This document shows positions 10,498-50,337 of a DNA stretch of 50,786 nucleotides, in pieces. The stretch comes from an uncultured Prevotellaceae bacterium. Its GTDB lineage: Bacteria > Bacteroidota > Bacteroidia > Bacteroidales > Bacteroidaceae. The notes under the pieces were generated by a model. The model searched no databases. It was not told where the DNA came from and saw only the letters and a program-made list of their open reading frames with translations. The stretch lies in assembly GCA_900314985.1 (NCBI GenBank), contig OMXL01000016.1, positions 1 to 50,786 of the forward strand, read 5' to 3'. How positions within the stretch are numbered: the first letter of the stretch is position 1; each line of letters begins with the position of its first letter. The position numbers were made by a program, and so were the translations under genes.

Positions 10498-10525
10498 GTT
10501 GAGAATTAATAGTTAAGAGTTAAGA
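10498..10525. repeat. Heptamer array: GTTGAGA ATTAATA GTTAAGA x2
   Basis: Four consecutive 7-nt units in the divergent regulator/GH127 intergenic region. Confidence 0.6.
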
Positions 10526-10565
10526 AAAAAAGTGAGAATAAAGTGTATTATTCTCACTTTTTTTC
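10524..10565. promoter_or_regulatory. 17-bp perfect inverted repeat at the GH127 promoter
   Basis: Arms 10524-10540 and 10549-10565 are perfect reverse complements (GAAAAAAAGTGAGAATA) with an 8-nt loop. The right arm ends 1 nt before the -7 box at 10567, so the -33 region lies inside the structure. It may be an operator, or a terminator-shaped insulator between divergent genes. Confidence 0.7.
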
Positions 10566-10566
10566 G

Positions 10567-10574
10567 TACCTTTG
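10567..10574 (+). promoter_or_regulatory. -7 promoter element of the GH127 gene
   Basis: TACCTTTG, followed by a leader of about 100 nt that can fold: CATCGT-GAA-ACGATG at once, then GGCAAT...ATTGCC around 10610-10632. Confidence 0.65.
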
Positions 10575-10676
10575 CATCGTGAAACGATGCGAGCCTGCTT
10601 TCGCTCGGCAATTCAAACTTGTTTGATTGCCCTCGCTTAACCGCAGCCTTGCAGGCAGAACTAACAGAACAATTCT

Positions 10677-12983
10677 ATGAGACAACTATTCCTTATTGGC
10701 TTGACAGCCATTGCTTTGACGGCAAGTGCAGCACAGACAAAGCGCATCGAGACTTTCCCCATCAAGAGTGTGAGACTGACCGATAGTCAGTTTCAGAAAA
10801 ATCAGCAGGCAGACATCCACTACCTCTTGGCGTTGGATGCTGACCGACTGTTGGCACCCTATCTGAAAGGTGCTGGTCTGACGCCTAAGGCCGAGAACTA
10901 CACCAACTGGGAGAATACGGGTTTGGACGGCCATATCGGTGGTCACTATGTGTCGGCACTGAGCTATATGGTGGCTGCCACAGGCAATCAGGAGATTAGT
11001 GCCCGTCTGGACTATGTGCTCAGCGAGTTGAAGCGCTGCCAGGACGCTCGTCAGGACGGCTATCTGGGTGGTGTACCCAATCCCAATGAGATATGGGGAC
11101 AGATTGCCAAGGGTGATATCCGTGCCAACTCTTTCGGACTGAACAACCGCTGGGTACCTCTTTATAATATCCATAAAATCTATGCCGGTCTGCGCGACGC
11201 CTACCTCATTGCAGGTCGTCAGCAGGCCAAGGAGATGCTTGTCAAGTTGACCGACTGGATGGTCAACGAGGTCAGCAAGTTGAGTGACGAGCAGATTCAG
11301 CAGATGCTGATTAGCGAGCATGGCGGATTGAACGAGTCGTTTGCCGATGTCGCTGAGCTGACAGGCGATAAGAAGTACCTCAAGCTGGCTCACCAGTTTA
11401 GCGACCAGCGCATCCTGCAGCCGCTGATGAAGGGCGAGGACAAACTGACGGGTATGCATGCCAACACACAGATTCCAAAGATTATCGGCTACAAGCGCAT
11501 TGCCGACCTGGAAGGCCGTAGCGACTGGGACCAGGCCGTCAAGTTCTTCTGGGACGTGGTGGTCAATCATCGTAGTGTCAGCATCGGTGGTAACTCTGAG
11601 CGCGAGCACTTCAACCCCACCGACAACTTCAGCAGTCTGCTGGCTTCAGAACAGGGTCCTGAGAGCTGTAATACCTATAACATGCTGCGACTGAGCAAGA
11701 TGCTCTATCAGACCACTGCCGACAAAAACTATATGGATTATTACGAGCGTGCCCTCTATAACCACATCCTCTCTACGATGAATCCCGTACAGGGCGGCTT
11801 CGTCTACTTCACCCCCATGCGTGCAGGTCACTACCGCGTCTATTCGCAGCCCCAGACCTCTATGTGGTGCTGTGTGGGTACAGGTATCGAGAACCCTGGC
11901 CGCTATGGCGAGATGATCTATGCTCACGAAGGCAACGACCTCATCGTCAACCTCTTCATCCCCTCTACGCTGACATGGGACGGCCTGACCGTTAAGCAGC
12001 AGAACCGCTTCCCACAGGAGGAAGCCACCACGCTGACCGTCGAACTGAAGAAGGCGCGCCAGTTTGCCATCAAGGTCCGCAAGCCAGCATGGGCAGATGC
12101 CGTGCAGCTTACTGTCAATGGAGAAGCCGTTGACTATCGCATCAGCGAGGGCTACCTCGTCGTTAACCGTCGTTGGCAGAATGGCGACCAGCTGCGTGTG
12201 GAGATGCCTATGCACCTGACTGCAATGACTACCCCTGACGGCAAGCCTCAGTACTCATTCCTCTATGGTCCCCTGGTGCTGGCTGCTAAGACGGGCACCG
12301 ACCGTCAGGACGGCCTCTTTGCTGATGACAGCCGCGGCGGACACACTGCTAACGGTCCGAAGGTGCCACAGGCTCAGATGCCTGGCATGGTAGGTAGTGC
12401 CGCCGATGTGCTATCTCACGTCACTCCCGTCGAGGGAAAGCCTCTCACCTTTAAACTCACGGGTCTTACCACTCCCGCCTACGAGGGCATCCAGCTGGTA
12501 CCTTTCTATCAGCTCTACGAGTGCCGTTATCAGATATACTTCCCCCTCTATTCAGAGTCAGAGTGGGCTGCCAAGCAGGCAGAGATGGCTGCTGCCGAGA
12601 AGGCTAATATGGAGATGGAGGCCAAAACCGTCGACAAGGTGTTCTGCGGTGAGCAGCAGTCAGAGAGCGACCACTTCTTCAAGTCTGTCGGTGCCTGGAA
12701 CGGCTACGACGAAGGCATGCACTGGCGTACCGCTCGTGGCAACTTCTCTTACCAGCTGAAGGCACAGGGTGCTAACGTGCTGCGCCTGAAAGGCTTTGCC
12801 GCCTACGACCGTGTCATTGTCAGCATTGATGGCCAACAGCTCGACACCGTCCGCCTGGATGGTCGGGGTCTTGCTGTCATCAACTTGCCTGCCACCCTGC
12901 AGAAGGAGAGCATCACCCTCACCCTCGCTGCCGAGCAGGGCAAACAGACGCCACGCATCCACGAAATCCGCCTTTGCAAGTAA
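10677..12983 (+). CDS. Secreted GH127-type beta-L-arabinofuranosidase
   Basis: 768 residues with a signal peptide (MRQLFLIGLTAIALTASAAQ). The GH127 alpha/alpha-barrel follows (NWENTGLDGHIGGHYVSALS, GYLGGVPN, NNRWVPLYNIHKIYAGL). The catalytic zinc/cysteine set is visible: ESCNTYNM gives Glu329 and Cys331, and MWCCVGTG gives Cys398 and Cys399. These correspond to the Glu, Cys and Cys-Cys set of characterised GH127 enzymes, in which one Cys is the nucleophile. A C-terminal extension (VDKVFCGEQQSESDHFF...) is an accessory domain usual in Bacteroidetes members. It probably removes arabinofuranose from plant glycans in the periplasm. No SusCD pair is adjacent, and it is transcribed alone. Confidence 0.88.
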   Translation: MRQLFLIGLTAIALTASAAQTKRIETFPIKSVRLTDSQFQKNQQADIHYLLALDADRLLAPYLKGAGLTPKAENYTNWENTGLDGHIGGHYVSALSYMVAATGNQEISARLDYVLSELKRCQDARQDGYLGGVPNPNEIWGQIAKGDIRANSFGLNNRWVPLYNIHKIYAGLRDAYLIAGRQQAKEMLVKLTDWMVNEVSKLSDEQIQQMLISEHGGLNESFADVAELTGDKKYLKLAHQFSDQRILQPLMKGEDKLTGMHANTQIPKIIGYKRIADLEGRSDWDQAVKFFWDVVVNHRSVSIGGNSEREHFNPTDNFSSLLASEQGPESCNTYNMLRLSKMLYQTTADKNYMDYYERALYNHILSTMNPVQGGFVYFTPMRAGHYRVYSQPQTSMWCCVGTGIENPGRYGEMIYAHEGNDLIVNLFIPSTLTWDGLTVKQQNRFPQEEATTLTVELKKARQFAIKVRKPAWADAVQLTVNGEAVDYRISEGYLVVNRRWQNGDQLRVEMPMHLTAMTTPDGKPQYSFLYGPLVLAAKTGTDRQDGLFADDSRGGHTANGPKVPQAQMPGMVGSAADVLSHVTPVEGKPLTFKLTGLTTPAYEGIQLVPFYQLYECRYQIYFPLYSESEWAAKQAEMAAAEKANMEMEAKTVDKVFCGEQQSESDHFFKSVGAWNGYDEGMHWRTARGNFSYQLKAQGANVLRLKGFAAYDRVIVSIDGQQLDTVRLDGRGLAVINLPATLQKESITLTLAAEQGKQTPRIHEIRLCK

Positions 12984-13010
12984 TTACATAGAAAATTGCC
13001 TTTACGTTCA

Positions 13011-13043: not shown

Positions 13044-13129
13044 TAAACCTTGTTTTTCATGGACATAAATTTATTGCAATTCTTTTTGAAAAAATAAGTG
13101 AAAACATTTAGTTGTTTCAAAAAATGTTG

Positions 13130-23096: not shown

Positions 23097-24260
23097 TTAA
23101 CCAATTTTACGGCAAATGTACAGACTGTGTGCTCCGTCTGCCTCGGTAGTAGCAAAGATGTAAGTGTCACCACCATCCTTTAGACGCAGTTTCTTACGCA
23201 ACTGTTCGACAGACAACGGGAAGTTCCGTACGCTGATATTGGCACGACTGACGCCCGCCAGTGTCTCCTTTAGAGTCTGCTTATTTGTCGATGAAATGGC
23301 GCAAATTTGAAAGCGACGGCCTGGGAAATCCTCGATTTCAACGGAAGACAGGAAGAGGTGCGAGTTGGCAGACACCTGACAGACGGGATACTGTTGTGGC
23401 AAAGCGTCAAAGCACCCTGCCTTCATGATGCTGGCGTTGGGTTCGTAGAGGAATTGTTCAGAGGTGAGAGGTGAGGGGTGAGGGGTGAGGGGTGAGGGGT
23501 GAGAGGACACTTCGAAAATCTGGTTGTTGTTGACACAGACCAGACGCAAGGGGCGCTCAGCCTGTTCCAGCACCAGAAGCAGTTCCTTGCACTCGTTATC
23601 CACACTGACAATGTGTACCTCTCTGACGTATTGCAGGTCATCGACGGCCTTGCGCCAGTCCAGCATGGGCGACAGCTTGAGAATCACCTTGTCCGCTTTC
23701 TCCATCAGGAGTGGTAGCAGTTCCAGGATGTTGGGCGTGCAGTCCTTGATGTCATAGGTGCGACCGCCATGTTCGTTGCGACGGGCAGGGTCTAAGAAGA
23801 CGACATCAGCGTGAGGAACAGTTGGTAGGTATGTTGCTGTGTCACAACAACAGACGGAGCAGCTATGCCCCAACGTGCGGAAGTTATGCTCAACCAACTC
23901 GCAAAGCTCGGCATTCCGCTCTACATAGTAGCGCTGCTTGAAGCCCTGCGACATCCAGTAGAAGTCAACGCCCAAGCCACCCGTCAGGTCCACATACGTA
24001 TCACCGCTGCCTGCCAGTCGGGCCTTGTAGCGTGCCGTCTGTTCGCTGGAACACTGTTCCATATTCAGATGAGGCGGATAGAGTACACGCTCTACAGCAG
24101 CCCACGACGGCAACTTCTTCAGCGCCGTCTGTCGACCCGCAATCTGTTGCAATGCCATCGACAAATCAACAGCAGCATCTTTCGTGCCCTGTAGTGCCAG
24201 TTTGCGCACATCGTCAGCAGCATGCTGGCGGATGAAGTCCCATGTCTGTTCATTAATCAT
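23097..24260 (-). CDS. THUMP-like domain SAM-dependent methyltransferase
   Basis: 387 residues, starting MINEQTWDFIRQHAADDVRK. A class I methyltransferase core is visible: YVDLTGGLGVDFYWMS (motif I), DVVFLDPARRNEHG (motif IV) and LKLSPMLDW. The C-terminal THUMP-like part includes RANISVRNFPLSVEQLRKKL. These proteins are presumed RNA methyltransferases; the target is unknown. The five extra codons upstream overlap the promoter, so the start is set at 24260. A heptamer repeat array is embedded in frame (23461-23506), encoding a HPSPLTP/HPSPLTS repeat just before the conserved FLYEPNASIMKAGCF. Confidence 0.8.
   Translation of the reverse strand: MINEQTWDFIRQHAADDVRKLALQGTKDAAVDLSMALQQIAGRQTALKKLPSWAAVERVLYPPHLNMEQCSSEQTARYKARLAGSGDTYVDLTGGLGVDFYWMSQGFKQRYYVERNAELCELVEHNFRTLGHSCSVCCCDTATYLPTVPHADVVFLDPARRNEHGGRTYDIKDCTPNILELLPLLMEKADKVILKLSPMLDWRKAVDDLQYVREVHIVSVDNECKELLLVLEQAERPLRLVCVNNNQIFEVSSHPSPLTPHPSPLTSEQFLYEPNASIMKAGCFDALPQQYPVCQVSANSHLFLSSVEIEDFPGRRFQICAISSTNKQTLKETLAGVSRANISVRNFPLSVEQLRKKLRLKDGGDTYIFATTEADGAHSLYICRKIG
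23461..23506. repeat. In-frame heptamer array, GGTGAGG x6
   Basis: Six 7-nt units (GGTGAGA, GGTGAGG x4, GGTGAGA) inside the methyltransferase gene; on the coding strand CCTCACC. Confidence 0.85.
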
Positions 24261-24264
24261 GGCA

Positions 24265-24272
24265 CAAAGATA
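24265..24272 (-). promoter_or_regulatory. -7 promoter element of the methyltransferase, abutting the start codon
   Basis: The reverse complement reads TATCTTTG, only 4 nt before the ATG at 24260. A leaderless transcript is expected. Confidence 0.65.
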
Positions 24273-24296
24273 CAAATAAAGTTTAAATTATCAATA

Positions 24297-24327
24297 ATTC
24301 TTAATTCTCAATTCTCCATTTTCAATT
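24297..24327. repeat. Heptamer array, ATTCTCA-type x4
   Basis: ATTCTTA, ATTCTCA, ATTCTCC, ATTTTCA in the divergent methyltransferase/dapB intergenic region, just upstream of the dapB promoter. Confidence 0.75.
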
Positions 24328-26616: not shown

Positions 26617-26650
26617 ATGTTTGATGTAAGAGGGAAGATGTAAGATGTAA
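26616..26650. repeat. Heptamer array, GATGTAA-type
   Basis: GATGTTT, GATGTAA, GAGGGAA, GATGTAA, GATGTAA between lepB and its paralogue; the first unit touches the lepB stop codon. Confidence 0.65.
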
Positions 26651-26655
26651 GAGAT

Positions 26656-27156
26656 ATGGTTAAATGGCTGAAGAACGTGATAGTACTGGCATCAGCGTTC
26701 GCACTGATGCTAGGCTTTCGTGCTTTGGTCTTTTCCATTCACAACGTGACGGGCAACGGATTGGAACCACTATACAAACATGGCGACTGCCTACTGGTGA
26801 ATCGGTGCAGCTATGGACTGCGTATCGAGGGACATGGACTCCTACCCTACAGTCGTCTGTTGCGCCAACCCGTTAAGAGAGGCGACATCGTTGCCTTCAC
26901 CATGCCCAGCGACTCTGTCGCAGGAATCTGCATCGCCCGCTGCAAGGCTGTCCCCGGTGACACCATCAACACACTGAAGGGAAAGCTTGTCGTGCCAGGA
27001 CTGAACACCTGTGCCAAGGCCGACTACTACTGGCTGGAGGCACTGAACCAACAGAACCCTGCCGACTCGCGCCACCTGGGGTTTATCCCAGAGAGTAACA
27101 TCATCGGAGAAGTCATCACCGTCATATATAACCGTAAAAATCTCAGACTGCAATGA
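26656..27156 (+). CDS. Catalytically dead signal peptidase I paralogue
   Basis: 166 residues with one N-terminal transmembrane helix. It aligns without gaps to LepB around the Ser box: LepB IPSSSLEKSLLTGD against VTGNGLEPLYKHGD, so the nucleophile Ser99 is replaced by Gly35. The Lys box YVKRCVGLPGQT aligns with CIARCKAVPGDT, replacing Lys by Ala94. The GDN box is degraded (LEALNQQNPADSRHLGFIP) yet the fold signature remains. A peptidase role is therefore unlikely; it could bind precursors or modulate LepB. It lies 39 nt after lepB and overlaps the next gene by 4 nt (ATGA), so it is expressed, not a relic. Confidence 0.8.
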   Translation: MVKWLKNVIVLASAFALMLGFRALVFSIHNVTGNGLEPLYKHGDCLLVNRCSYGLRIEGHGLLPYSRLLRQPVKRGDIVAFTMPSDSVAGICIARCKAVPGDTINTLKGKLVVPGLNTCAKADYYWLEALNQQNPADSRHLGFIPESNIIGEVITVIYNRKNLRLQ

Positions 27157-27785
27157 GTACAGCGTTGTTACAGACTACCTATTTTGGTCCCATCCAATGG
27201 TACCAGAAATTGTATCGCTATGACCAGACGCTGATAGAACAGTATGACACCTACCAGAAGCAGACCTACCGTAACCGCTGCGTGATAGCTACAGCCAACG
27301 GCTTGCAGGCACTGACGGTACCCGTAGAACATAACGTTCAACGTTCAATGTTCAATGTTCAATGTAAGGACCTCCGCATCAGTGACCACAACCAGTGGCG
27401 ACGTGTACACTGGAATGCCTTGCAGAGCGCTTATAGCGAGAGTCCATTCTTTGACTACTATGCTGACGATATCCGTCCGTTCTTTGAAAAGAAATATGAG
27501 TTTTTGGTCGATTTCAACGAGGCTATCCGACAGACCGTGTGCGACCTGTTGGATATACAGCCCAAGGTAGAGTACACCTCATCATTCCTCTCACCTCTCA
27601 CCTCTCACCTCTCACCTCTTGATGACTTCCGAGAAGTCATCAATGTCAAGCATCCACAGGCTGATGCAGACTTTCAGCCTCGTCGCTACTGGCAGGTGTT
27701 CGAGGGCAAGCATGGCTTCCAAGCCAATCTCTCGATTCTCGACCTCTTATTTAATATGGGAAACGAAGCTATTTTTTATTTATAA
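27153..27785 (+). CDS. WbqC-like family protein
   Basis: 210 residues. The family start is TTYFGPIQWYQKLYRYDQ, followed by KQTYRNRCVIATANGLQALTVPV and RISDHNQWRRVHWNALQSAY. WbqC-like proteins occur in surface polysaccharide and core loci but have no proven reaction. Two heptamer arrays are embedded in frame: 27333-27365 (encoding NVQRSMFNVQ) and 27587-27620 (encoding LSPLTSHLSPL). It overlaps the upstream signal-peptidase-like gene by 4 nt. Confidence 0.8.
   Translation: MSTALLQTTYFGPIQWYQKLYRYDQTLIEQYDTYQKQTYRNRCVIATANGLQALTVPVEHNVQRSMFNVQCKDLRISDHNQWRRVHWNALQSAYSESPFFDYYADDIRPFFEKKYEFLVDFNEAIRQTVCDLLDIQPKVEYTSSFLSPLTSHLSPLDDFREVINVKHPQADADFQPRRYWQVFEGKHGFQANLSILDLLFNMGNEAIFYL
27333..27365. 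repeat. In-frame heptamer array, AACGTTC/AATGTTC x4
   Basis: AACGTTC x2 and AATGTTC x2 plus a partial unit, within the WbqC-like gene. Confidence 0.85.
27587..27620. repeat. In-frame heptamer array, CCTCTCA x4
   Basis: Four identical 7-nt units and a partial fifth, within the WbqC-like gene. Confidence 0.9.
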
Positions 27786-29800: not shown

Positions 29801-30244
29801 TTATTTCAGGTGTGTCCCCTTATCAATACACTGCGGACAGATGCCCTTTACCACATATTCTGCCTCTTCCATCTGGAAACCATTAGGCAATGGTACAGAA
29901 GGAATATGGACGTCCTTCAGACAGAAGGTGCGATGGCAACAGCGACACGTCAGGTGTACATGACCAAAACACTGGCGCGTATCGTCCAAATGACAGACAC
30001 AGTATTTCTGTGAACCTGAGCCGTCATCGATATCGTGCAGCAGATGTGCCTCAGAGAGCAGGGTCAGCGTACGGAAGATAGTAGAGCGATCGACGGTGGG
30101 CAGCGCGGCCTCCAAATCAGCTAAGCTGAAAGCGTCGCTGAACCCATGCCGCACCTTGCGCCAGATAAGCAGACGTACTGCCGTAAGGCGTATGCCCGCA
30201 TTGTCAAGAATCTGTTCGTCGGATATGTCGAGGTGTGCCATCAT
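29801..30244 (-). CDS. Fur family transcriptional repressor
   Basis: 147 residues from the first of two Met codons (30244/30241); the longer frame crosses the promoter. The winged-helix region has DNAGIRLTAVRLLIWRKV and VDRSTIFRTLTLLSEAHLLH, the Fur/Zur/PerR recognition region. The dimerisation part has metal-site residues (HVHLTCRCCHRTFC, GICPQCID), a two-CxxC structural zinc arrangement. Which metal or peroxide it senses is unclear. It is divergent from a sufT-like gene, with back-to-back promoters in 60 nt, and may repress itself and that gene. Confidence 0.85.
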   Translation of the reverse strand: MMAHLDISDEQILDNAGIRLTAVRLLIWRKVRHGFSDAFSLADLEAALPTVDRSTIFRTLTLLSEAHLLHDIDDGSGSQKYCVCHLDDTRQCFGHVHLTCRCCHRTFCLKDVHIPSVPLPNGFQMEEAEYVVKGICPQCIDKGTHLK

Positions 30245-30264
30245 AATTTTTTTGCTTTCGACTG

Positions 30265-30293
30265 CAAAGATACAAAAATTTTTCGTACCTTTG
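30265..30293. promoter_or_regulatory. Back-to-back promoters of the Fur-family and sufT-like genes
   Basis: The minus-strand TATCTTTG (30265-30272) and plus-strand TACCTTTG (30286-30293) face away from each other 13 nt apart. The two promoters overlap, so one repressor could block both. Confidence 0.65.
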
Positions 30294-30314
30294 CAACAGA
30301 AGACTGATAATATT

Positions 30315-30635
30315 ATGACACAAGAAGAGAGAACACAACTGGAAGAGCGCATTGTTGATGTGCTGAAGACCGTCTATGACCCAGAGATTCCCGTCAACAT
30401 CTATGATCTTGGCATGATCTACAAGATTGACGTGCAGGACGATGGTTCTGTGGATATGGACATGACGTTTACTGCTCCTAACTGTCCTGCGGCCGACTTC
30501 ATCCTCGAGGATGTTCGCACCAAGGTAGAGAGTGTTGATGGCATCAAGGGTGCCAATGTCAACCTCGTCTTTGAGCCTGCCTGGGATCAAAGCATGATGA
30601 GTGAAGAAGCACGCGTCGAACTGGGGTTCGACTAG
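30315..30635 (+). CDS. SufT/MIP18 (DUF59) family iron-sulfur assembly factor
   Basis: 106 residues from MTQEERTQLEERIVD; the longer open frame upstream overlaps the Fur gene antisense. DUF59 signature: VLKTVYDPEIPVNIYDLGMIY and TFTAPNCPAADFILEDV. These proteins help mature or deliver Fe-S clusters. Divergent pairing with a Fur-family regulator suggests metal-linked control (inference). The stop codon runs straight into a heptamer array. Confidence 0.88.
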   Translation: MTQEERTQLEERIVDVLKTVYDPEIPVNIYDLGMIYKIDVQDDGSVDMDMTFTAPNCPAADFILEDVRTKVESVDGIKGANVNLVFEPAWDQSMMSEEARVELGFD

Positions 30636-30662
30636 TGAATAGTGAACAGTGAATAGTGAAAA
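30635..30662. repeat. Heptamer array, GTGAATA-type x4
   Basis: GTGAATA, GTGAACA, GTGAATA, GTGAAAA from the last base of the sufT-like stop codon to just before the lpxH start. Confidence 0.8.
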
Positions 30663-31428: not shown

Positions 31429-31447
31429 ATAAGCGGGCTTCGCCCTA

Positions 31448-31482
31448 GTGAAGAGTGATTAGTGAATAGTGAAGAGAGAAGA
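31448..31482. repeat. Heptamer array, GTGAAGA-type x5
   Basis: GTGAAGA, GTGATTA, GTGAATA, GTGAAGA, GAGAAGA between lpxH and the sugar kinase; the last unit may supply its purine-rich ribosome site. A short GGGC-TTC-GCCC hairpin precedes it (31435-31446). Confidence 0.75.
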
Positions 31483-31486
31483 GAGA

Positions 31487-32545
31487 ATGGGAAAGAAGAT
31501 AGTTACTTTTGGTGAGCTGTTGCTGAGGTTCTCGAAACCGGGACAGCTGCGACTGACACAGGGCGACCTGTTTACAAGCAAGTATGGTGGTAGCGAGGCG
31601 AATGTAGCCGTGTCATTAGCTACACAGGGCGAAGACGTAACCTACATTACCCGTCTGCCAGAAACACCCGTGGGTCGTGCTGGTGCGATGAATCTGGCCC
31701 AGTTGGGCGTCGATGTCAGTCACGTGCTTTATGGCGGACAGCGCATTGGCACCTATTATTTCGAGCCCGCTGCAGGCATGCGTGCCGCCAAGGTTATCTA
31801 CGACCGCTCAGGCTCTGCCTACTACGACCTGCAGCCAGGTATGATTCCCTGGCGCGAAATTCTGAAAGACTGTGCCTACTTCCATGTGTCGGGCATCACT
31901 GCTGCCATCTCTCCACAGGCTGCCGAAGCTACCTTCGAGGCCCTCGACATTGCCGATGAGTTAGGTGTCACCATTTGTTTCGATATCAACTACCGCAAGA
32001 ATCTGTGGAAATATGAGGGCGCAGAGCCTCGCAGGACGCTGAGCCGTATGCTGTCGCGCTGCGACATGATGTTTGGCGATGCCATCGAATTCGACTGGCT
32101 GTCACAACACCCACAGCCACCCTTCACGGCTACCGACTCCCATTTCGAGATGCAGATGAAGGAGTATGGCGAGTGGTTCGATGAGTTGCACGCACAGTAT
32201 CCACGCCTGAAACACTGGATGATGGGTATGCGCAATATTGTCAACTCTAACCACCACACGCTGACAGCCATGCTATGGACTGAAGGCCAGCTGCTACAGG
32301 CGCCCATCATGGATATCCCTGACGTGGTAGACCCCGTAGGTGTGGGCGACGCCTTTGTAGGCGGTTGGCTACATGCTGTCAACCTCTACCCTGACGACAT
32401 GCAGAAACAGCTGAACTACTCGCTGGCGGCAGCGGCGCTGAAGAACACCATCCCTGGTGACTTCAACCTGTCCACAGAAAGTGAGATACTGGATGTGATG
32501 GAAGAACGCCACAACATCTCCACGCTATACAAGACAATAGAATAA
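31487..32545 (+). CDS. PfkB family sugar kinase, 2-keto-3-deoxygluconate kinase-like
   Basis: 352 residues from MGKKIVTFGELLLRFSKPG. PfkB motifs: GGSEANVAVSLATQG near the N-terminus and DVVDPVGVGDAFVGGWLHA near the C-terminus (the usual GAGD reads GVGD, with the catalytic Asp kept). FDINYRKNLWKYE is typical of KDG kinases in Bacteroidetes. It would phosphorylate KDG to KDPG in uronate breakdown, which fits the mannitol-dehydrogenase-family gene at 16,644. No aldolase gene is adjacent. Confidence 0.82.
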   Translation: MGKKIVTFGELLLRFSKPGQLRLTQGDLFTSKYGGSEANVAVSLATQGEDVTYITRLPETPVGRAGAMNLAQLGVDVSHVLYGGQRIGTYYFEPAAGMRAAKVIYDRSGSAYYDLQPGMIPWREILKDCAYFHVSGITAAISPQAAEATFEALDIADELGVTICFDINYRKNLWKYEGAEPRRTLSRMLSRCDMMFGDAIEFDWLSQHPQPPFTATDSHFEMQMKEYGEWFDELHAQYPRLKHWMMGMRNIVNSNHHTLTAMLWTEGQLLQAPIMDIPDVVDPVGVGDAFVGGWLHAVNLYPDDMQKQLNYSLAAAALKNTIPGDFNLSTESEILDVMEERHNISTLYKTIE

Positions 32546-35007: not shown

Positions 35008-35014
35008 CAAATTA

Positions 35015-35045
35015 ATTCTCAATTTTCAATTCTCAATTCTCAATT
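35015..35045. repeat. Heptamer array, ATTCTCA-type x4
   Basis: ATTCTCA, ATTTTCA, ATTCTCA x2 between cdaA and the pta promoter. Confidence 0.8.
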
Positions 35046-35853: not shown

Positions 35854-36720
35854 TTACCTATTTCGCGTTTTATATGCTGCGACATCGTCGCAGTTATTTC
35901 GCAGCGCCTTCATCGCAGTCCACATCTTCACCACCTCCACGGCCTGCTTCACGTCGTGAACGCGCAGGATGTCGGCACCTTTCTGCAGCGAGATGGTGTT
36001 CAGCATGGTCGTGCCATTCAGAGACTCCTCAGGAGTAGTGCCCAGCAGTCGGTATATCATCGACTTGCGCGAGATACCTACCAGCACAGGCAGGTGCAGC
36101 ATCTGCATGCGCTCCAGTTCCTGCATGCAGGCATAGTTCTGTTCCACCGTCTTGCCAAAGCCGAAGCCAGGGTCCAGGATGATGTCCTTCTGACCCATAG
36201 AGCGCAGCGTGTCAACCACCTCTGCACAGTCTATCATCACCTCCTTCATCGTGGCCTTGCGCGACATATAGATATAAGGTACGCCCAGACGGCTCACCAT
36301 GCGGAACATGTCACGTTGAACGTTGAACGTTGAACATTGAACATTCACGGGGCCTGCCACGTCGTTGATGATGTCGGCACCAAACTCCTCGACGGTCATG
36401 CGGGCCACGTCAGGACGATAGGTATCAATAGAGACAATGGCCTCAGGGGCCTCACGCCTGACGATGGCCAAGGCAAAGCGAAGACGCTCCATCTCCTCGG
36501 CTTCCGTGGCAGGCTCGCTGTCAGGACGCGTCGAGCAGGCGCCCACATCGATGATGCTAGCCCCTTCGTCCAGTATCTGGTGCGTACGCTCAGCTATCTC
36601 CTGCTCTGTCTGCATTCTGCTGCCAGCATAGAACGAGTCGGGCGTAGCGTTCAGGATTCCCATCACCTGTGGTGTCTTCAACTCCAGCAACTTTCCGTTA
36701 CAATTCAGCGTATAATTCAT
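35854..36720 (-). CDS. folP: Dihydropteroate synthase
   Basis: 288 residues from MNYTLNCNGKLLELKTP; the 29 earlier codons cross the promoter and were rejected. Motifs: VMGILNATPDSFY, ASIIDVGACSTRPDSEP, DIINDVAG, IILDPGFGFGKTVEQNY and VLVGISRKSMIYRLLG. It condenses pABA with the pterin diphosphate in folate synthesis. A heptamer array (36315-36345) is embedded in frame right after DIINDVAGP and encodes NVQCSTFNVQ, in a loop where homologues normally have a few residues. Confidence 0.93.
   Translation of the reverse strand: MNYTLNCNGKLLELKTPQVMGILNATPDSFYAGSRMQTEQEIAERTHQILDEGASIIDVGACSTRPDSEPATEAEEMERLRFALAIVRREAPEAIVSIDTYRPDVARMTVEEFGADIINDVAGPVNVQCSTFNVQRDMFRMVSRLGVPYIYMSRKATMKEVMIDCAEVVDTLRSMGQKDIILDPGFGFGKTVEQNYACMQELERMQMLHLPVLVGISRKSMIYRLLGTTPEESLNGTTMLNTISLQKGADILRVHDVKQAVEVVKMWTAMKALRNNCDDVAAYKTRNR
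36315..36345. repeat. In-frame heptamer array in folP, GTTGAAC x4
   Basis: GTTGAAC x3 and ATTGAAC. On the coding strand it is the same GTTCAAC/GTTCAAT heptamer as in the WbqC-like gene. Confidence 0.88.
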
Positions 36721-36728
36721 ATTAGGTG

Positions 36729-36736
36729 CAAAGTTA
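36729..36736 (-). promoter_or_regulatory. -7 promoter element of folP-cdaA
   Basis: The reverse complement reads TAACTTTG, 8 nt before the folP ATG, so the leader is almost absent. Confidence 0.65.
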
Positions 36737-36780
36737 CGAAATATTTTATAATGTATCATGCTTAATTCATAATTATTTTG

Positions 36781-36788
36781 TATTTTTG
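36781..36788 (+). promoter_or_regulatory. -7 promoter element of murF
   Basis: TATTTTTG, 17 nt before the start at 36806. Confidence 0.65.
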
Positions 36789-36805
36789 CGCCAAAATTCA
36801 CAAAC

Positions 36806-38167
36806 ATGATGGATATAAAAGAGCTCTATAAGCTGTACCAGCAGCATCCGTGTATTACGACAGACTCGCGCAACTGTCCTGAGGGCAGCATCTTCCTGGC
36901 CTTGAAGGGTGAGTCGTTCAATGGCAACCAGTTCGCACTCCAGGCATTGGAGAAAGGTTGCGCCTATGCTATTGTAGATGAGGCCCCCTCCAACCTCCCC
37001 CAAAAAGGGGAGGCAATTATTAAAGTCGAGGATTGCCTGCAGACCTTCAAGGACTTAGCGCGCGAGCATCGTCGCCAATTTGATATACCTGTCATTGGCA
37101 TTACGGGAACGAATGGCAAGACCACTACCAAGGAGTTGATTCGTGCCGTGCTGGCAGAGTGCTATAGCGTGATGGCTACCGAGGGTAACTTCAACAACGA
37201 CGTGGGTGTTCCCAAGACGCTGTTCCGCCTCAGTGACGACCACGACATTGCCGTTGTAGAGATGGGTGCTTCGCATCCTGGCGACATCAAGACGCTGGTA
37301 GAGACGGCCGAGCCTACCTGTGGCCTCATCACCAATGTGGGTCGTGCCCACCTGCAGGGCTTCGGCTCCTTCGAGGGTGTCTGCAAGACCAAGGGCGAGC
37401 TGTATGATTTCCTGATTGCTCATGACTGTCCCCTCTTTGTCAATCGCGACAACGAATATCTGATGAAGATGCTATCCTCTCACCTCTCACCTCTCACCAC
37501 TCACCACTCACCAGATGTTTACTACTATGGTCAGAGCGACAACGAGGACATCCTGATTCGTGGCGAGGTCATCAGCTGTGCGCCGTTCCTCAAGTTCCGC
37601 TGGCGCGAGCAAGACCATGATGCAGGCTACACCTCTGACTGGATGGAGGTACAGACTCACCTGATTGGTGCCTATAACCTCGACAATATGTTGGCAGCCA
37701 TCACTATTGGCTACGTCAACAACATACCCTTCGAGCAGATTAACCACGCCCTGGAGAACTACGTGCCCACCAACAACCGCTCGCAGCTGACAGAAACCAA
37801 GACCAACCACCTCATCGTGGATGCCTACAATGCCAACCCCACCTCGATGGCTGCCGCCATCGACAACTTCAAGCGTATGGAGGTGTCGCCCAAGATGGCT
37901 ATCCTAGGTAAGATGGGCGAGCTGGGCGATGTCAGCGCTGAGGAGCACCAGAAGGTCGTCAAGATGCTGGCCGATGCCAGCTTCGACGAGGTATGGCTGG
38001 TAGGTGACGAGTACAAAAACTGTCAACTTTCAACTTTCAACTTTCAACTTTTTAAGGACGTAGAAGAAGTAAAAGCTGCGATTGCCAAGCAGCAACCGCA
38101 GCATAAGTATATCTTGATAAAGGGTTCAAACAGCGTTAAGCTCTATCAGTTGCCTGAGCTGTTGTAA
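36806..38167 (+). CDS. murF: UDP-N-acetylmuramoyl-tripeptide--D-alanyl-D-alanine ligase
   Basis: 453 residues. The Mur-ligase ATP loop is VIGITGTNGKTTTKE (about 96-110); other motifs are ATEGNFNNDVGVP, EMGASHPGDI, ITNVGRAHLQGFGS, DAYNANPTSM and LGKMGELG. It adds D-Ala-D-Ala to the peptidoglycan precursor in the cytosol. Three separate repeats are embedded in frame: a GC-rich palindrome (PSNLPQKGEA, about 61-70), a CCTCTCA/CCACTCA heptamer array (LSSHLSPLTTHHSP) and a TCAACTT heptamer array (NCQLSTFNFQL). The start could be 36806 or 36809. It ends 2 nt from the convergent DUF4353 gene. Confidence 0.95.
   Translation: MMDIKELYKLYQQHPCITTDSRNCPEGSIFLALKGESFNGNQFALQALEKGCAYAIVDEAPSNLPQKGEAIIKVEDCLQTFKDLAREHRRQFDIPVIGITGTNGKTTTKELIRAVLAECYSVMATEGNFNNDVGVPKTLFRLSDDHDIAVVEMGASHPGDIKTLVETAEPTCGLITNVGRAHLQGFGSFEGVCKTKGELYDFLIAHDCPLFVNRDNEYLMKMLSSHLSPLTTHHSPDVYYYGQSDNEDILIRGEVISCAPFLKFRWREQDHDAGYTSDWMEVQTHLIGAYNLDNMLAAITIGYVNNIPFEQINHALENYVPTNNRSQLTETKTNHLIVDAYNANPTSMAAAIDNFKRMEVSPKMAILGKMGELGDVSAEEHQKVVKMLADASFDEVWLVGDEYKNCQLSTFNFQLFKDVEEVKAAIAKQQPQHKYILIKGSNSVKLYQLPELL
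36981..37014. repeat. GC-rich palindromic repeat in frame in murF
   Basis: AGGCCCCCTCCAACCTCCCC then CAAAAAGGGGAGG. Confidence 0.7.
37476..37513. repeat. In-frame heptamer array in murF, CCTCTCA x3 + CCACTCA x2
   Basis: Five consecutive 7-nt units in the murF central domain. Confidence 0.9.
38023..38050. repeat. In-frame heptamer array in murF, TCAACTT x4
   Basis: Four identical 7-nt units in the C-terminal domain coding region. Confidence 0.9.
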
Positions 38168-39291: not shown

Positions 39292-40065
39292 TTAGAATTT
39301 AAACTTATAGCCTACACCGATATAGTGCATATCGGGGTCGTAAACACCTGCCTCGACATTCTTCTTATTCTCATAGCGGTAGAACACGTCGAGCGAGTGC
39401 TGCTTGGTCAGATTGATGTCCGCACCCAGCGTATAACGGATCTTCTCAACCTCGTCAGTGTTATACAGCTCCACGCTGGCGTAGGGCGTCAGCAGGGCGT
39501 GCTTCTTGTCGTATTCCACCTGCAGGCGAGAACGCAACTGGTTCTTGGCCTTGCCCGAACGCGCCTTGTCTTCCCAGCAAGCGTTGTCGAAGTCCCAACG
39601 CTCTACAGTCTTCTCAGGACGGTAGGTGTATTGCCAACGCTCGCGCAGTGAGACGCGCAGGCCGTTCTGGAACTTATACGAACCCGTCAGCGAGGCATGT
39701 ACACGATGACGCAAGCCCCAGTACGAAGGACGCCAGTTGTTGTAAGCGCCTGACGACTTATAGCTGATATCCTCACGAAAGTTGGTGTTCAACAGTGTAT
39801 AGCCCGCATCGGCCTTCAGCCACTTGTTGAACTTGTAAGTAGCACCAAGACCCAGGCTCCAGCGCTCCATTGTTTTGAAGTCGTTACGGGTACGCAGTTC
39901 AGCCTCCACACCGACAGACAACTGCTTGTTGACCTTCTTCTCGACCTCAGCACCAGCTATCAGGCCTCCCTCAGTCTGTGCTGACGCAGTGAATAGCGAA
40001 CAGTGAACGGTGAATAGTAGGGCGAGGGCGTAGCGTACCGTCTGCTGACCATTAAACCTTTTCAT
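39292..40065 (-). CDS. DUF2490 outer-membrane beta-barrel-like protein
   Basis: 257 residues from MKRFNGQQTVRYALALLF; the longer frame overlaps DUF4956 antisense-free but lacks a signal peptide at its N-terminus. The signal peptide (ALALLFTVHCSLFTASAQ) is followed by alternating aromatic/polar strands (YKFNKWLKADAGYTLLNT, LRVSLRERWQYTYRP, SLDVFYRYENKKN) and a terminal GVGYKFKF, with the C-terminal Phe typical of outer-membrane barrels. The hydrophobic core FTVHCSLFT is encoded by a heptamer array at 39989-40016. It overlaps the DUF4956 gene by 14 nt. Confidence 0.8.
   Translation of the reverse strand: MKRFNGQQTVRYALALLFTVHCSLFTASAQTEGGLIAGAEVEKKVNKQLSVGVEAELRTRNDFKTMERWSLGLGATYKFNKWLKADAGYTLLNTNFREDISYKSSGAYNNWRPSYWGLRHRVHASLTGSYKFQNGLRVSLRERWQYTYRPEKTVERWDFDNACWEDKARSGKAKNQLRSRLQVEYDKKHALLTPYASVELYNTDEVEKIRYTLGADINLTKQHSLDVFYRYENKKNVEAGVYDPDMHYIGVGYKFKF
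39989..40016. repeat. Heptamer array forming part of a signal peptide
   Basis: GTGAATA, GCGAACA, GTGAACG, GTGAATA (plus strand), coding on the minus strand for the FTVHCSLFT hydrophobic core of the DUF2490 signal peptide. Confidence 0.85.
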
Positions 40066-42977: not shown

Positions 42978-42986
42978 ATGGGAAAA

Positions 42987-43017
42987 ATTGAGAATGGAGA
43001 ATGCAGAATGGAGAATT
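42987..43017. repeat. Heptamer array, ATGGAGA-type x4
   Basis: ATTGAGA, ATGGAGA, ATGCAGA, ATGGAGA upstream of recO. Confidence 0.75.
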
Positions 43018-43073
43018 TTGAGCGCCTATGTAGTTAATTAAGGTTAAATAATTGATAATGAAAGTAAATTATT

Positions 43074-43101
43074 CACTTTTCACTTTCCACTTTTCACTTT
43101 T
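43074..43101. repeat. Heptamer array, CACTTTT x4
   Basis: CACTTTT, CACTTTC, CACTTTT x2 ending 5 nt before the tRNA promoter, covering its -33 region. Confidence 0.8.
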
Positions 43102-43106
43102 ATTTG

Positions 43107-43114
43107 TACCTTTG
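43107..43114 (+). promoter_or_regulatory. -7 promoter element of tRNA-Glu and rpsT
   Basis: TACCTTTG, about 53 nt before the tRNA. Confidence 0.65.
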
Positions 43115-43167: not shown

Positions 43168-43239
43168 GGTCCCTTCGTCTATCGGTTAGGACGAGAGATT
43201 TTCATTCTCTAAAGAGGAGTTCGACTCTCCTAGGGACTA
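43168..43239 (+). tRNA. tRNA-Glu (UUC)
   Basis: The acceptor stem GGTCCCT pairs with AGGGACT (first pair G-U). The D arm contains GTCTATCGGTTAGGAC. The anticodon stem AGAGA/TCTCT holds the 7-nt loop TTTTCAT, anticodon TTC. The T arm is GAGGAGTTCGACTCTCC. No CCA is encoded. rpsT follows 174 nt later and may share the transcript; nothing recognisable lies between. Confidence 0.93.
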
Positions 43240-47789: not shown

Positions 47790-47870
47790 CAGTCGAAAAT
47801 CACAGAAAACATCACGCCAAGGAAAATAAATGATACAATAAACAAATAAACTCAAATCAAACATGAACAG

Positions 47871-50114
47871 ATGAGAAAGACAATTATCCTTTTGTGTACA
47901 TTGCTTGTGCAGCTGACTGCATGGGCACAGTTGGGCAGCGGACACTTCTTCAAGTCGCTGCGAAGTGAAAATCTTACGGAACAGAGAGCCGTAGAGTACT
48001 TCAATCAGTGGTTCGCCCTGCCTCAGGAAACCGAGTGGCAACGAGTGGGCGAGCGCACCGACAGGCTGGGCATGACCCGCGTGGAATACCGCCAGTATGT
48101 GAGCGGTGTGGAAGTGGAGCACTCGCAGGTGCTGCTGCATATTAAGGACGGTCGCGTGCAAACCGCCAACGGCACCGTGATGGAAGTTCGCCAGGCACCC
48201 TCTAAGATTCGCCACTACGCCAAGATCTATCGCAACGGCACACCCACCGACCAGCTGGGCCGGACACTCTATCTGGTTAGCACTAATGATGGCTACCGCT
48301 ATGCCACAAAGGTGCTCTCGGCTGACAAGAGCGAGTGGATATACAGCGACGCTGACTCCGGTGAAGTCCTAAAGCGCATCCCCACACGCTACAACTTGAC
48401 AGCAGAACCCGTGACAGTCACCGGCAGCACCATCTACAGCGGTGAAGTTCAGATGGATGCCACCCACGACACAGAGAGCGGTGCCTATATGCTCTGGGAT
48501 CAGCAGCGTAACATCCACACCATGATAGGTGCCACCCTGCCCTCGTTTCAGATGATGCCTAAAGAGGTCTTTGTAGAAAACTTCCCCCAATATGCAGAGA
48601 CGTTGCCGGTTCCCATCGAAGAGATGACGGACCAATTATGGACAGAGTGGTTTAGTAATCTAACCCTTGACTTGAACACGCTGGAGCTGACGACCTACAT
48701 CGCTCGCAATGCGCTCTATGCCGCCAGCACCGAGCCCCATTTTGACAGCTATGTCCTCAATACGCTCACCATCGACCGCCTGGCCACAGTCGACGAGGAC
48801 AAAACAGTTACGGAAATCGTGCCATCGAAGTTCAATCCACTCACCCTCTACACGGAAATCCAGTATGCGGGTACCGATGGTATCATAGATCGAAGCCAAA
48901 ACACCATTACCAAATTTCCGTTTACGCTCAACCTGAAGGGCTATTTCGACGAAGTGCCCACTGCGGGCATCGACATCACCTTGTATGCCGTTACCACGAA
49001 TGAAAACAACCAGCAGAACCCTACGACGAAAACGCTTCTGAACAACATAAGACTTGTACCCGACGCCAGCGGCTATAAGGAGTGGAACGCGGAACTGCTG
49101 AAGGCATCGGCTACCTACGAGAAGGGACCGTGGTCGGCTGCCGACATCCACTGGGGCATGCAGCATACCTACGACTTCTACATGAACTACTTTGGTCGCA
49201 ACAGCTACGACGACAATGGTGCCCCTATCTACAACCTCTTCTATCTGCCTGACGACAAACGCAGTCTGTCATACATTCTTCGCACCGACCCCAACAACGC
49301 TATGGCCCTTAACGCCGGCACATCCCAGATGGTTTATGGCATGGGGTCACGTGACTATGGTTACTACAACATGTATCCTGTCGTGGAACTGAGTGTCATG
49401 GCCCATGAGTTCACCCATATGGTGACTCACACCACTGCCGATTTAGTCTATCAGGGAGAGTCGGGCGCACTGAACGAGTCGTTCTCTGACGTGTTTGGTG
49501 TCAGCATCAAGAAGCATGTGCAAGGCAACGACGCTCCGTGGACCATTGGCGATGGCGTAATGGCTAATTTCTCAAGCATGCGCTCCATGTCGTTCCCCAA
49601 GATGGGCATGGATGGCAAGGACCCCAGTCCCGACACCTATCAGGGAGAGTACTGGATAGATACTAAGAGCCAAGATGACCACGGCGGCGTACACAGGAAC
49701 AGTGGCGTGCAGAACAAATGGTACTACCTGCTCACTGACGGTGATTCCGGCACTAACGACAATGGCTACAGCTACCAAGTCAATGGCATCGGCATAGAGA
49801 AGTCTCAGCAAATTGCCTACCGCACCCTGACAGAGTATGCCACTCAGGAGTCGCAGTACGCCGACATCCGCCTGGCCTCCCTCCAGGCCGCTGAGGATCT
49901 CTTTGGCGAGAATGCCGCTGAGGTGATGGCCGTCGATGAGGCTTGGAAGGCAGTAGGCGTAGGCGGTGGCGGAGATCCGACCGCCATCCGCAACATTGAG
50001 CAAGCAGTTCAACCCTCAACAGTTCCTTCCGTCTATGACCTCGCTGGCCGCAAGGTGCAAAACCCACAGAAGGGTCTCTACATCATTAATGGCAAAAAGG
50101 TGATGGTCAAGTAA
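47871..50114 (+). CDS. Secreted M4-family (thermolysin-like) metalloprotease
   Basis: 747 residues. Signal peptide (IILLCTLLVQLTAWAQ), an FTP/PepSY-like propeptide (about 20-180; VSGVEVEHSQVLLHIKDGRV), then the catalytic domain: VMAHEFTHMVTH gives His512, Glu513 and His516, and GALNESFSDVFG supplies the third zinc ligand Glu536. NKWYYLLTDG and AYRTLTEYATQESQYADIR follow, as in thermolysins. The C-terminal VYDLAGRKVQNPQKGLYII then NGKKVMVK resembles the short Prevotella C-terminal tails linked to type IX secretion. An exported, self-processed protease is expected. Confidence 0.9.
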   Translation: MRKTIILLCTLLVQLTAWAQLGSGHFFKSLRSENLTEQRAVEYFNQWFALPQETEWQRVGERTDRLGMTRVEYRQYVSGVEVEHSQVLLHIKDGRVQTANGTVMEVRQAPSKIRHYAKIYRNGTPTDQLGRTLYLVSTNDGYRYATKVLSADKSEWIYSDADSGEVLKRIPTRYNLTAEPVTVTGSTIYSGEVQMDATHDTESGAYMLWDQQRNIHTMIGATLPSFQMMPKEVFVENFPQYAETLPVPIEEMTDQLWTEWFSNLTLDLNTLELTTYIARNALYAASTEPHFDSYVLNTLTIDRLATVDEDKTVTEIVPSKFNPLTLYTEIQYAGTDGIIDRSQNTITKFPFTLNLKGYFDEVPTAGIDITLYAVTTNENNQQNPTTKTLLNNIRLVPDASGYKEWNAELLKASATYEKGPWSAADIHWGMQHTYDFYMNYFGRNSYDDNGAPIYNLFYLPDDKRSLSYILRTDPNNAMALNAGTSQMVYGMGSRDYGYYNMYPVVELSVMAHEFTHMVTHTTADLVYQGESGALNESFSDVFGVSIKKHVQGNDAPWTIGDGVMANFSSMRSMSFPKMGMDGKDPSPDTYQGEYWIDTKSQDDHGGVHRNSGVQNKWYYLLTDGDSGTNDNGYSYQVNGIGIEKSQQIAYRTLTEYATQESQYADIRLASLQAAEDLFGENAAEVMAVDEAWKAVGVGGGGDPTAIRNIEQAVQPSTVPSVYDLAGRKVQNPQKGLYIINGKKVMVK

Positions 50115-50142
50115 AACAAAACTGAAGTAAGATATGACAAAA

Positions 50143-50173
50143 AAGTGCTGCAGACATATTGTTTGCAGCACTT
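50143..50173 (+). terminator. Terminator of the M4 protease gene
   Basis: AAGTGCTGCA (50143-50152) pairs with TGCAGCACTT (50164-50173), followed by CGTTTTT. Confidence 0.85.
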
Positions 50174-50260
50174 CGTTTTTGAGTGTGTTCAACAGCAAAT
50201 TTTCGTTTCACTCTACTCACTATTCTTTGACCTGAAGGTCAAAGTGTGGCTTCGCAATCG

Positions 50261-50337
50261 TTATTCACTATTAACTATTCACTATTCACTATTCACTATT
50301 CACTATTCGTTATTCGTTATTCACTATTAACTATTCA
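50261..50337. repeat. Longest heptamer array, CTATTCA-type x11
   Basis: Eleven consecutive 7-nt units (TTATTCA, CTATTAA, CTATTCA x4, CTATTCG, TTATTCG, TTATTCA, CTATTAA, CTATTCA) between the protease and the smalltalk gene. Confidence 0.92.

What the first reader, a model, noticed from the sequence alone, without database searches (positions are those of the whole stretch)
10498..50337. Dispersed arrays of tandem heptamers with related units
Sixteen arrays share a strict 7-nt period but use different heptamers: ATTCTCA, GTGAATA, CCTCTCA, GTTCAAC, TCAACTT, CACTTTT, GATGTAA, GGTGAGG and others. Most can be written on one strand as T/C/A-rich units containing TCA, so they look like one diverging family. 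Array sizes run from 4 to 11 units. They sit in intergenic gaps, often touching a stop codon or a promoter, and inside genes. Heptamer short tandem repeats are known in cyanobacteria; I know of no defined system for Bacteroidales. None appears in the first 10.4 kb of accessory DNA.
Basis: partly seen in the sequence, partly recalled or inferred. Interest (0 to 1): 0.8.

Follow-up and report, generated by a model that had tools for sequence, protein, structure and literature searches.

The report
Dispersed four-to-five-unit heptamer arrays in Prevotella
A rumen Prevotella genome is peppered with short runs of four to five copies of a seven-letter DNA word, whose words differ between species, between sites and between parts of genes, which makes the unexplained abundance of seven-base repeats in bacteria open to direct testing.

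Summary
Confirmed and extended. All 16 arrays exist; period 7, with 14 and 21, is the only clearly enriched short period. In 436 kb of the genome there are 105 period-7 arrays, against 1-4 at periods 5, 6, 8, 10, 11 and 13, and 15 and 10 at the codon-related periods 9 and 12. A grammar pattern matches 127 of 150 congeners, with counts from 0 to 775.

Four features fit simple slippage poorly. (1) Isolated perfect arrays peak at 25-35 nt after a trough at 21-24 nt. (2) Orthologous sites often carry different units at equal length; one-unit length changes are rare. (3) Units recur within genomes. (4) Unit and context are coupled: CCTCTCA in coding DNA, TAGTGAA at gene ends. The seed test is inconclusive.

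Bacterial heptamer repeats are known and unexplained, so this is a new variant of a known kind. Best reading, held moderately: roughly 30-nt blocks copied into tolerated positions and filtered by context. No generator was found; RVT_1, Y1_Tnp, Ku and IMS do not explain presence.

The parts
10497..10525 (-). period-7 array, 4.1 copies (AACTCTT class); a TAnnTTTG box follows on the minus strand towards the gene at 8854-10455
23460..23503 (-). period-7 array CCTCACC inside the THUMP-like gene 23097-24275, TCA on the coding strand
24295..24327 (+). period-7 array AATTCTC between divergent genes, followed by a TATCTTTG box upstream of dapB
26626..26653 (-). period-7 array GATGTAA/GTAAGAG between two Peptidase_S26 genes
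27333..27365 (+). period-7 array, AACGTTC units then AATGTTC units (block structure), inside the WbqC-like gene 27153-27785
27587..27619 (+). perfect period-7 array CCTCTCA, 4.7 copies, inside the same WbqC-like gene
30633..30660 (-). period-7 array TAGTGAA overlapping the stop of the FeS-assembly gene 30096-30635
31446..31488 (-). period-7 array TAGTGAA/GAGAGAA between the metallophosphatase gene and the PfkB gene
35014..35045 (+). period-7 array AATTCTC between pta and the diadenylate cyclase gene; several relatives hold other heptamers at this site
36313..36345 (-). period-7 array TTCAACG/TTCAATG inside folP (Pterin_bind, 35854-36807)
36737..36780 (.). 44-nt spacer between the facing -7 boxes of folP and murF; degenerate period-7 sequence here, filled by arrays of different heptamers in relatives
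37476..37513 (+). period-7 array, CCTCTCA block then CCACTCA block, inside murF (36806-38167)
38018..38051 (+). period-7 array AACTTTC inside murF
39987..40018 (-). weak period-7 array CAGTGAA (72% matches)
   Evidence: only; not recovered by the detector
42986..43016 (-). period-7 array ATTCTCC, left arm of an outward-facing pair; TTACCTTTG on the minus strand towards recO
43072..43101 (+). period-7 array TTTTCAC, right arm of the pair; TACCTTTG box at about 43107 upstream of a tRNA gene (43168-43239)
50262..50340 (+). longest array in the window, TATTCAC, 11.3 copies, with a TATTCGT block; followed by the inverted repeat GCTTGCGCT...AGCGCAAGC

Best explanation
The arrays behave like a family of roughly 30-nt micro-elements, each made of four to five heptamers. 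Shown: period 7 only, a preferred length, dispersal, units that recur within a genome more than between genomes, and positions that tolerate sequence change (promoter spacers, gene 3' ends, stretches of coding sequence). Inferred: a new array is laid down as a block whose unit can come from elsewhere in the genome, instead of growing only from a local seed one unit at a time. Also inferred: selection then keeps blocks that fit the context (stop-free and richer in G+C inside genes, stop-bearing at gene ends, A+T-rich at promoters), point mutation erodes them, and tolerated sites are refilled with other units. The enzyme or template that lays down the block is unknown.
For: Period-7 specificity. 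Perfect isolated arrays in two samples: 36 and 34 at 25-35 nt, 2 and 4 at 21-24 nt, 5 and 6 at 20 nt, 2 and 2 above 35 nt, with period 10/11/13 controls at 0 above 21 nt. Shared unit between unlinked sites of one genome 8.6% (346 of 4039 pairs) against 2.5% between genomes (1437 of 57895), permutation maximum 4.1%; without the own genome 7.5% (45 of 599) against 2.4%. At the folP/murF site, 36 of 86 loci have facing -7 boxes; 28 of the 36, the window included, keep a spacing of 43-45 nt. In 21 of these at least 59% of positions match at distance 7, with at least seven different heptamers. Where relatives carry different units the commonest length difference is 0 (135 of 605) and a difference of 7 occurs 4 times (both directions counted). 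Intragenic arrays are mostly in the stop-free orientation: the coding-strand unit has a stop in 7 of 45, the other strand in 34 of 45.
Against: No generator was identified. The seed test does not settle the matter: 18 of 229 arrays have a clean empty site in a relative, but these are only 9 distinct sites. The own unit matches the empty sites slightly better than random units do (5.67 against 5.28 per site, reached by 7% of draws; 5.5 against 5.27 over all 18, reached by 11%), and 3 of 9 sites hold a full copy of the unit. Which side is ancestral was not established, so loss of an array could also leave no seed. One case (L120 against L113) holds 1.6 units and differs by exactly 21 nt, as slippage would give. 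Unit turnover is not faster than synonymous change overall: units are identical at 10 of 23 sites with 90-95% flanks, while four-fold sites differ by 17-26% among three close species. Variant units lie in contiguous blocks (453 runs against 538 expected, z -7.2), which fits local spread. The distribution of unit differences lies between stepwise and wholesale replacement. In the second sample there is also an excess at 14-19 nt (79 against 52). Recurrence of units is strong in a few genomes and absent in others. The unit-context coupling is not required by a purely mutational model. In ten further genomes the length quantum could not be tested, with 6 isolated perfect arrays above 20 nt in all.
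Confidence: 0.38

Rival explanations
1. Replication slippage with a seven-base preference. Local seeds expand by slippage, are kept homogeneous by slippage-like conversion, and drift in sequence at the neutral rate.
For: Variant units lie in contiguous blocks. Same-unit pairs differ by 7 nt in 10 of 131. Three of 9 empty sites hold a full copy of the unit and one array differs from its empty site by exactly 21 nt. Identity of units falls roughly with synonymous divergence.
Against: Length distribution has a trough and a second peak instead of a decline. Different-unit pairs rarely differ by 7 nt (4 of 605). Units recur at unlinked sites within genomes and are coupled to context.
Confidence: 0.27
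2. The arrays are selected gene-boundary parts: promoter spacers, stop and 3'-end elements, and coding linkers, whose unit is chosen by function.
For: Unit and context are associated beyond G+C in both samples (mutual information 0.661 against a G+C-stratified shuffle maximum of 0.633 in the own genome; 0.455 against 0.415 in relatives). TACCTTTGC lies within 40 nt after 46 of 447 arrays against 0.8 expected. Outward-facing pairs are 34 of 53 close neighbours in relatives and 6 of 7 in the own genome. A head GCGGTAGCAAA abuts a subset.
Against: The same promoter spacer holds many units or decayed sequence in different species. Congeners with zero pattern matches exist and carry the same murF gene. 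Arrays inside murF and folP are hard to explain as regulation.
Confidence: 0.23
3. Part of a REP/BIME-like palindromic element mobilised by a Y1 (RAYT-type) transposase, with the arrays as its outer ends.
For: Head GCGGTAGCAAAYT in 66 of 150 genomes, rank correlation 0.60 with array density, and two or more copies in 0 of 41 array-poor genomes. Outward-facing pairs lie mostly 20-60 nt apart. Y1_Tnp-positive genomes have a higher median density (48.8 against 10.3 per Mb).
Against: Only 2 inverted head pairs among 48 heads in fetched loci. 30 of 88 array-rich genomes lack the exact head. 15 genomes above 40 per Mb have no Y1_Tnp match, including the densest. Correlations are not corrected for kinship or completeness.
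Confidence: 0.08
4. Phase-variable contingency loci of the Haemophilus hmw type, where copy number switches expression.
For: Some arrays sit at promoters, and a change of 7 nt inside a gene would shift its frame.
Against: Copy number is narrow and rarely differs by one unit between species; host genes include murF and folP with intact domain matches.
Confidence: 0.03

Closest known systems
Over-representation of tandem heptamers in prokaryotic intergenic DNA (SPADE survey, PMC6344855, passages read; Mrazek 2007, known only through citing papers)
   Same: Tandem heptamers dispersed in many prokaryotes; the survey states that there is no clear clue about function.
   Different: Here a preferred length of four to five units, recurrence of units within genomes, unit-context coupling and unit change at fixed sites are measured in one genus.
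TAACTGA direct repeats of Beggiatoaceae, Cyanobacteria and five Bacteroidetes (MacGregor 2015, PMC4679880; abstract and one section read)
   Same: Dispersed heptamer direct repeats; in the best-studied genome two to six copies of one word, mostly intergenic.
   Different: Many units per genome here; TAACTGA is not among the units listed or in the capped lists; nearly half of the arrays lie inside genes.
GGGAATC and GGGGA(T/C)T repeats of Xanthomonas and Nostoc (Rehm 2015, PMC4692102; passages and one section read)
   Same: The majority of arrays in Xanthomonas have four units; convergent pairs occur in 70 and 75 cases in two species; 90% of repeats lie between the same genes in both species, with variable length and sequence.
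   Different: Own-genome units here rarely have G-tracts (2 of 105), so G-quadruplex folding cannot explain the four-to-five-unit preference in this genome.
7-bp promoter repeats of Haemophilus influenzae hmw1A and hmw2A (PMC2424069, passages read)
   Same: Heptamer tandem repeats in promoters.
   Different: There 9-28 copies, with expression tied to copy number; here mostly four to five copies, rarely differing by one unit between species.
REP/BIME elements with RAYT transposases (recalled, not read here)
   Same: Inverted, dispersed, gene-boundary elements with a short conserved head.
   Different: The repeated part is a heptamer array, and a Y1 gene was not found in every genome that carries the head.

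Membership tests
Prokaryotic heptameric simple sequence repeats | Excess of period 7 over neighbouring periods | tested here: met
Prokaryotic heptameric simple sequence repeats | Concentration outside coding sequence | tested here: met
   55 of 105 own arrays are intergenic or at gene edges although non-coding DNA is 13.5% of the sample; the other 50 are inside genes
Prokaryotic heptameric simple sequence repeats | Origin by polymerase slippage | tested here: inconclusive
   length distribution against it, block structure for it, empty sites undecided
TAACTGA repeats | Unit TAACTGA | tested here: not met
   not among the units listed; one search lists only the top 25 units of each sample
TAACTGA repeats | Location just upstream of start codons in forward orientation (as in the Beggiatoaceae genome) | tested here: not met
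   own sample: 2 gene 5' ends and 14 promoters against 38 gene 3' ends, 46 coding and 5 others
G-quadruplex heptamer repeats (GGGAATC type) | Tract of at least three G in each unit | tested here: not met
   in the own genome only the ACCCCTC class (2 of 105) has such a run
G-quadruplex heptamer repeats (GGGAATC type) | Inverted pairs of arrays with G-rich strands converging | tested here: met
   34 of 53 close pairs in relatives and 6 of 7 in the own genome have this arrangement
Copy-number phase variation (hmw type) | Variable copy number of a fixed unit at a fixed promoter | tested here: not met
   between species, unit changes are common and a difference of 7 nt is rare; variation within a strain was not testable
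REP/BIME with RAYT | Palindromic core with conserved head | tested here: inconclusive
   head found but only 2 inverted pairs of 48 heads
REP/BIME with RAYT | Y1 transposase in genomes that carry the element | tested here: inconclusive
   13 of 50 genomes with three or more heads have no Y1_Tnp match, but several of them are incomplete

The most novel reading that the evidence does not exclude
Array-rich Prevotella carry an unrecognised activity that writes blocks of four to five copies of a genome-specific heptamer into chromosomal sites without needing a local seed, a telomerase-like or patch-copying process acting throughout the chromosome. The four-unit habit reported for Xanthomonas would then reflect the same kind of writer and not G-quadruplex folding.
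Probability: 0.17. Interest if true: 0.92.

Novelty: new variant of a known kind. Interest (0 to 1): 0.64.

Why it matters
A 2018 survey of 7006 prokaryotic genomes states that tandem heptamers are the most abundant intergenic repeats and that there is no clear clue about their function (PMC6344855, passages). This genus offers close relatives with zero and with hundreds of matches, a preferred length, units that recur within genomes, empty sites, and sites whose unit changes at constant length. That turns a survey-level oddity into a system in which origin and function can be tested in cultured rumen isolates. If blocks are written without a seed, it would be a new mutational process that also edits genes such as murF and folP.

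Tried and rejected
Generator candidates by presence in 150 genomes (own genome included): reverse transcriptase RVT_1 in 70, no relation to array density (p 0.60) and no match in the own genome; Ku in 0 of 150; DinB-type IMS in 142 of 150, so not discriminating; Y1_Tnp in 88, associated with density (p 5e-5, uncorrected for kinship and completeness) but without a match in 15 genomes above 40 per Mb. Density is the sum of pattern and backward-pattern matches per Mb.

Inversion of arrays in place: inverted units at orthologous sites (59 cases) are about as frequent as chance matches between unrelated units, so no inversion signal. Faster-than-neutral unit turnover: not supported overall. G-quadruplex: own units rarely have G-tracts. 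Rfam on the window at gathering thresholds: one tRNA only. Absence from accessory DNA: too few expected to conclude.

On re-checking, the seed test proved weaker than first written: its 18 arrays fall on 9 sites, and 3 of these hold a full copy of the unit. I lowered the best explanation from 0.45 to 0.38 and the novel case from 0.20 to 0.17, and raised slippage from 0.22 to 0.27 and selected function from 0.22 to 0.23.

The built-in control of the pattern searches (pattern read backwards) is not a clean null here, because ACT also recurs in many units.

Rows dropped before counts: 10 named loci that duplicate G-genome loci (second set, and later calls); also L102-L104 (replaced by longer stretches of the same genomes) and L088 (overlap with L069; trimmed, left out). 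L065 and L085 overlap by 1.4 kb and were trimmed only. Arrays under score 14 were left out (its run test). Pairs count both directions; one search counts each pair once, but pairs that share a site are not independent. The two samples of perfect arrays may share orthologous arrays. Gene calls come from a simple script of mine; promoter was assigned before gene 3' end and gene 3' end before 5' end.
Full report
Check of the observation. Exact matches at distance 7 of at least 10 nt number 12 against 0.05 in shuffles; distances 14 and 21 give 9 each, and every other distance from 4 to 30 gives 0 to 2. In 436,162 nt of the same genome (window plus 20 stretches) there are 35 exact runs of at least 14 nt at period 7; no other period from 2 to 13 has more than one. 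With mismatches allowed there are 105 arrays, against 1, 4, 3, 15, 3, 4, 10 and 2 for periods 5, 6, 8, 9, 10, 11, 12 and 13. The 20 stretches came from contigs with a known CCTCTCA match, so the density is biased upward.

Grammar. On the strand that carries it, 82 of 105 own units hold TCA, mostly with Y before it, A or C after it, and Y at the next position. Random genomic heptamers carry TCA on either strand in 25%. In relatives 221 of 360 arrays hold TCA. The unit set is therefore far from random but not closed.

Spread. Period 7 was strictly the most numerous of the periods tested (5-13) in 18 of 24 sampled congeners and tied in 2; in G027, G117, G024 and G122 it was not; G033 leads by 5 to 4 with one array counted twice. 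A pattern of TCA every 7 nt, four times, matches 127 of 150 congeners, with counts from 0 to 775 and 362 in the own genome, and 105 of 198 genomes of the class. Array-poor congeners with complete or nearly complete assemblies exist. At least one array-rich genome is from a record not labelled as a metagenome assembly (G055: L059 and L100 are the same contig, record title HUN156, 240 matches), so metagenome binning is not the cause. Loci L164-L178, mostly labelled Muribaculaceae or Bacteroidales, also show the excess, 29 arrays in 265 kb.

Length quantum. Among isolated perfect arrays in 1.22 Mb, 36 are 25-35 nt long, 2 are 21-24 nt, 5 are 20 nt and 2 are longer than 35; the 81 of 14-19 nt do not exceed an unfiltered control of 96. 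In a second set, the 55 named loci left after dropping 10 duplicates, the numbers are 34, 4, 6, 2 and 79 against 52. A process that adds one unit at a time should give a decline, not a trough and a peak. In five further congeners and five genomes of other families only 6 isolated perfect arrays exceed 20 nt, too few for this test, and array sizes there run from 2 to 15 whole units.

Same site, other word. Between folP and murF two facing -7 boxes (TAnnTTTG) were found in 36 of 86 loci; 28 of the 36, the window included, have 43-45 nt between them. In 21 of these at least 59% of positions match at distance 7, and six more look like decayed arrays. The heptamers include AATTCAT, TTTCTCA, AACTCTA (also as its reverse complement GTTTAGA), AACTTTA, AATTGAT, AATTGTC and AAGAGTG. 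At orthologous sites where both relatives carry arrays, each pair counted once, units are identical in 7 of 9 (flanks at least 95%), 10 of 23 (90-95%), 30 of 133 (85-90%) and 28 of 328 (80-85%). In one case (L064 against L127) the left flank aligns without a difference over about 90 nt while the whole array differs. When units differ, the commonest length difference is 0, and 7 nt is seen 4 times in 605; for identical units it is 10 in 131 (both directions counted). Against a fast process: four-fold sites differ by 17-26% among the species G150, G151 and G152 and by 38% between L064 and L127, so unit change is not faster than synonymous change in general.

Dialects and seeds. Unlinked sites of one genome share the unit in 8.6% of pairs, genomes among each other in 2.5%, permutation maximum 4.1%. 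The own genome dominates the first number; without it the values are 7.5% and 2.4%. Among 22 genomes with enough pairs a few are strong (L152, L158, G094, G081, G035) and at least four are at zero. The capped listing shows recurring words by eye, TCAACTC in G010 and TCAACAT in G045, but that pattern itself demands TCA. For 18 of 229 arrays a relative has a clean empty site, 18-48 nt shorter, commonest 30. These are 9 distinct sites. The own unit fits them only slightly better than other units do (5.67 against 5.28, reached by 7% of random draws), and three sites hold a full copy. The direction of change is not known, so this test neither shows nor excludes local seeds.

Context. Of 105 own arrays 46 are coding, 38 at gene 3' ends, 14 at promoters, 2 at 5' ends and 5 elsewhere; of 447 in relatives 126, 151, 109, 13 and 48. 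CCTCTCA is coding in 20 of 20 (20 of 26 in relatives), ACTATTC is at gene 3' ends in 10 of 16 (7 of 9), and ACTTTTC is at promoters in 6 of 8 (5 of 19 in relatives, a weaker result). The association exceeds all 1000 shuffles within G+C classes in both samples. Intragenic arrays avoid stops on the coding strand (7 of 45 have one, 34 of 45 on the other strand). In the window they lie in WbqC-like, THUMP-like, folP and murF genes. Two arrays closer than 120 nt face outward in 34 of 53 cases in relatives and 6 of 7 in the own genome, with no bias at 120-1000 nt (23, 22, 18 and 21). A head GCGGTAGCAAA directly precedes a subset: 6 of 9 own and 37 of 76 relative hits (one mismatch allowed) are followed by an array within 60 nt, 22 of the 43 at 2 nt. 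Its exact form with YT occurs in 66 of 150 genomes and tracks array density (rho 0.60), but 30 of 88 rich genomes lack it.

Reading. The length quantum, recurrence of units and constant-length change of unit favour blocks laid down as a whole, then filtered by context and eroded. Blocks of variant units, the intermediate distribution of unit differences and the undecided seed test keep slippage alive. The promoter and 3'-end coupling leaves a functional reading open. The generator is unknown; of four families tested none explains presence.

Known context. Heptamer abundance is established and unexplained (PMC6344855 and PMC4692102, passages). TAACTGA arrays are published for five Bacteroidetes (PMC4679880, abstract and one section). 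The four-unit habit and convergent pairs of Xanthomonas (PMC4692102, one section) are matched here with few G-tracts. Searches that listed no description of such arrays in Prevotella: limited to the open-licence library and judged from listings and the passages named.

Noticed in passing
window 43072-43114 and 43168-43239: A heptamer array followed by a TACCTTTG box directly upstream of a tRNA gene; its partner array on the other side faces recO.
   Followed up: partly
window 50262-50370: The longest array is followed by a G+C-rich inverted repeat; several ACTATTC arrays of the own genome are followed by short hairpin-like sequences such as GGGCGAAGCCC.
   Followed up: partly
window 220-10455: Stretch without arrays of four or more units, with a ParE-like toxin gene, an AAA ATPase, a Peptidase_M91-like protein and a 1058-aa protein without a Pfam match at E 0.001.
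   Followed up: no
L141 9500-9533 against L142 and L144: At a murF coding site one species has a CAACTCT array while relatives have a degenerate repeat of CTAGA-type words with a period near 9.
   Followed up: no
G094 (L076, L093): One genome uses a GTGTGGA word at 6 of its 10 sampled arrays.
   Followed up: partly
G024, G076, G084, G122: Congeners at 99% completeness with 0 period-7 arrays in 40-80 kb samples, useful as array-free controls; G122 has 6 pattern matches genome-wide.
   Followed up: partly
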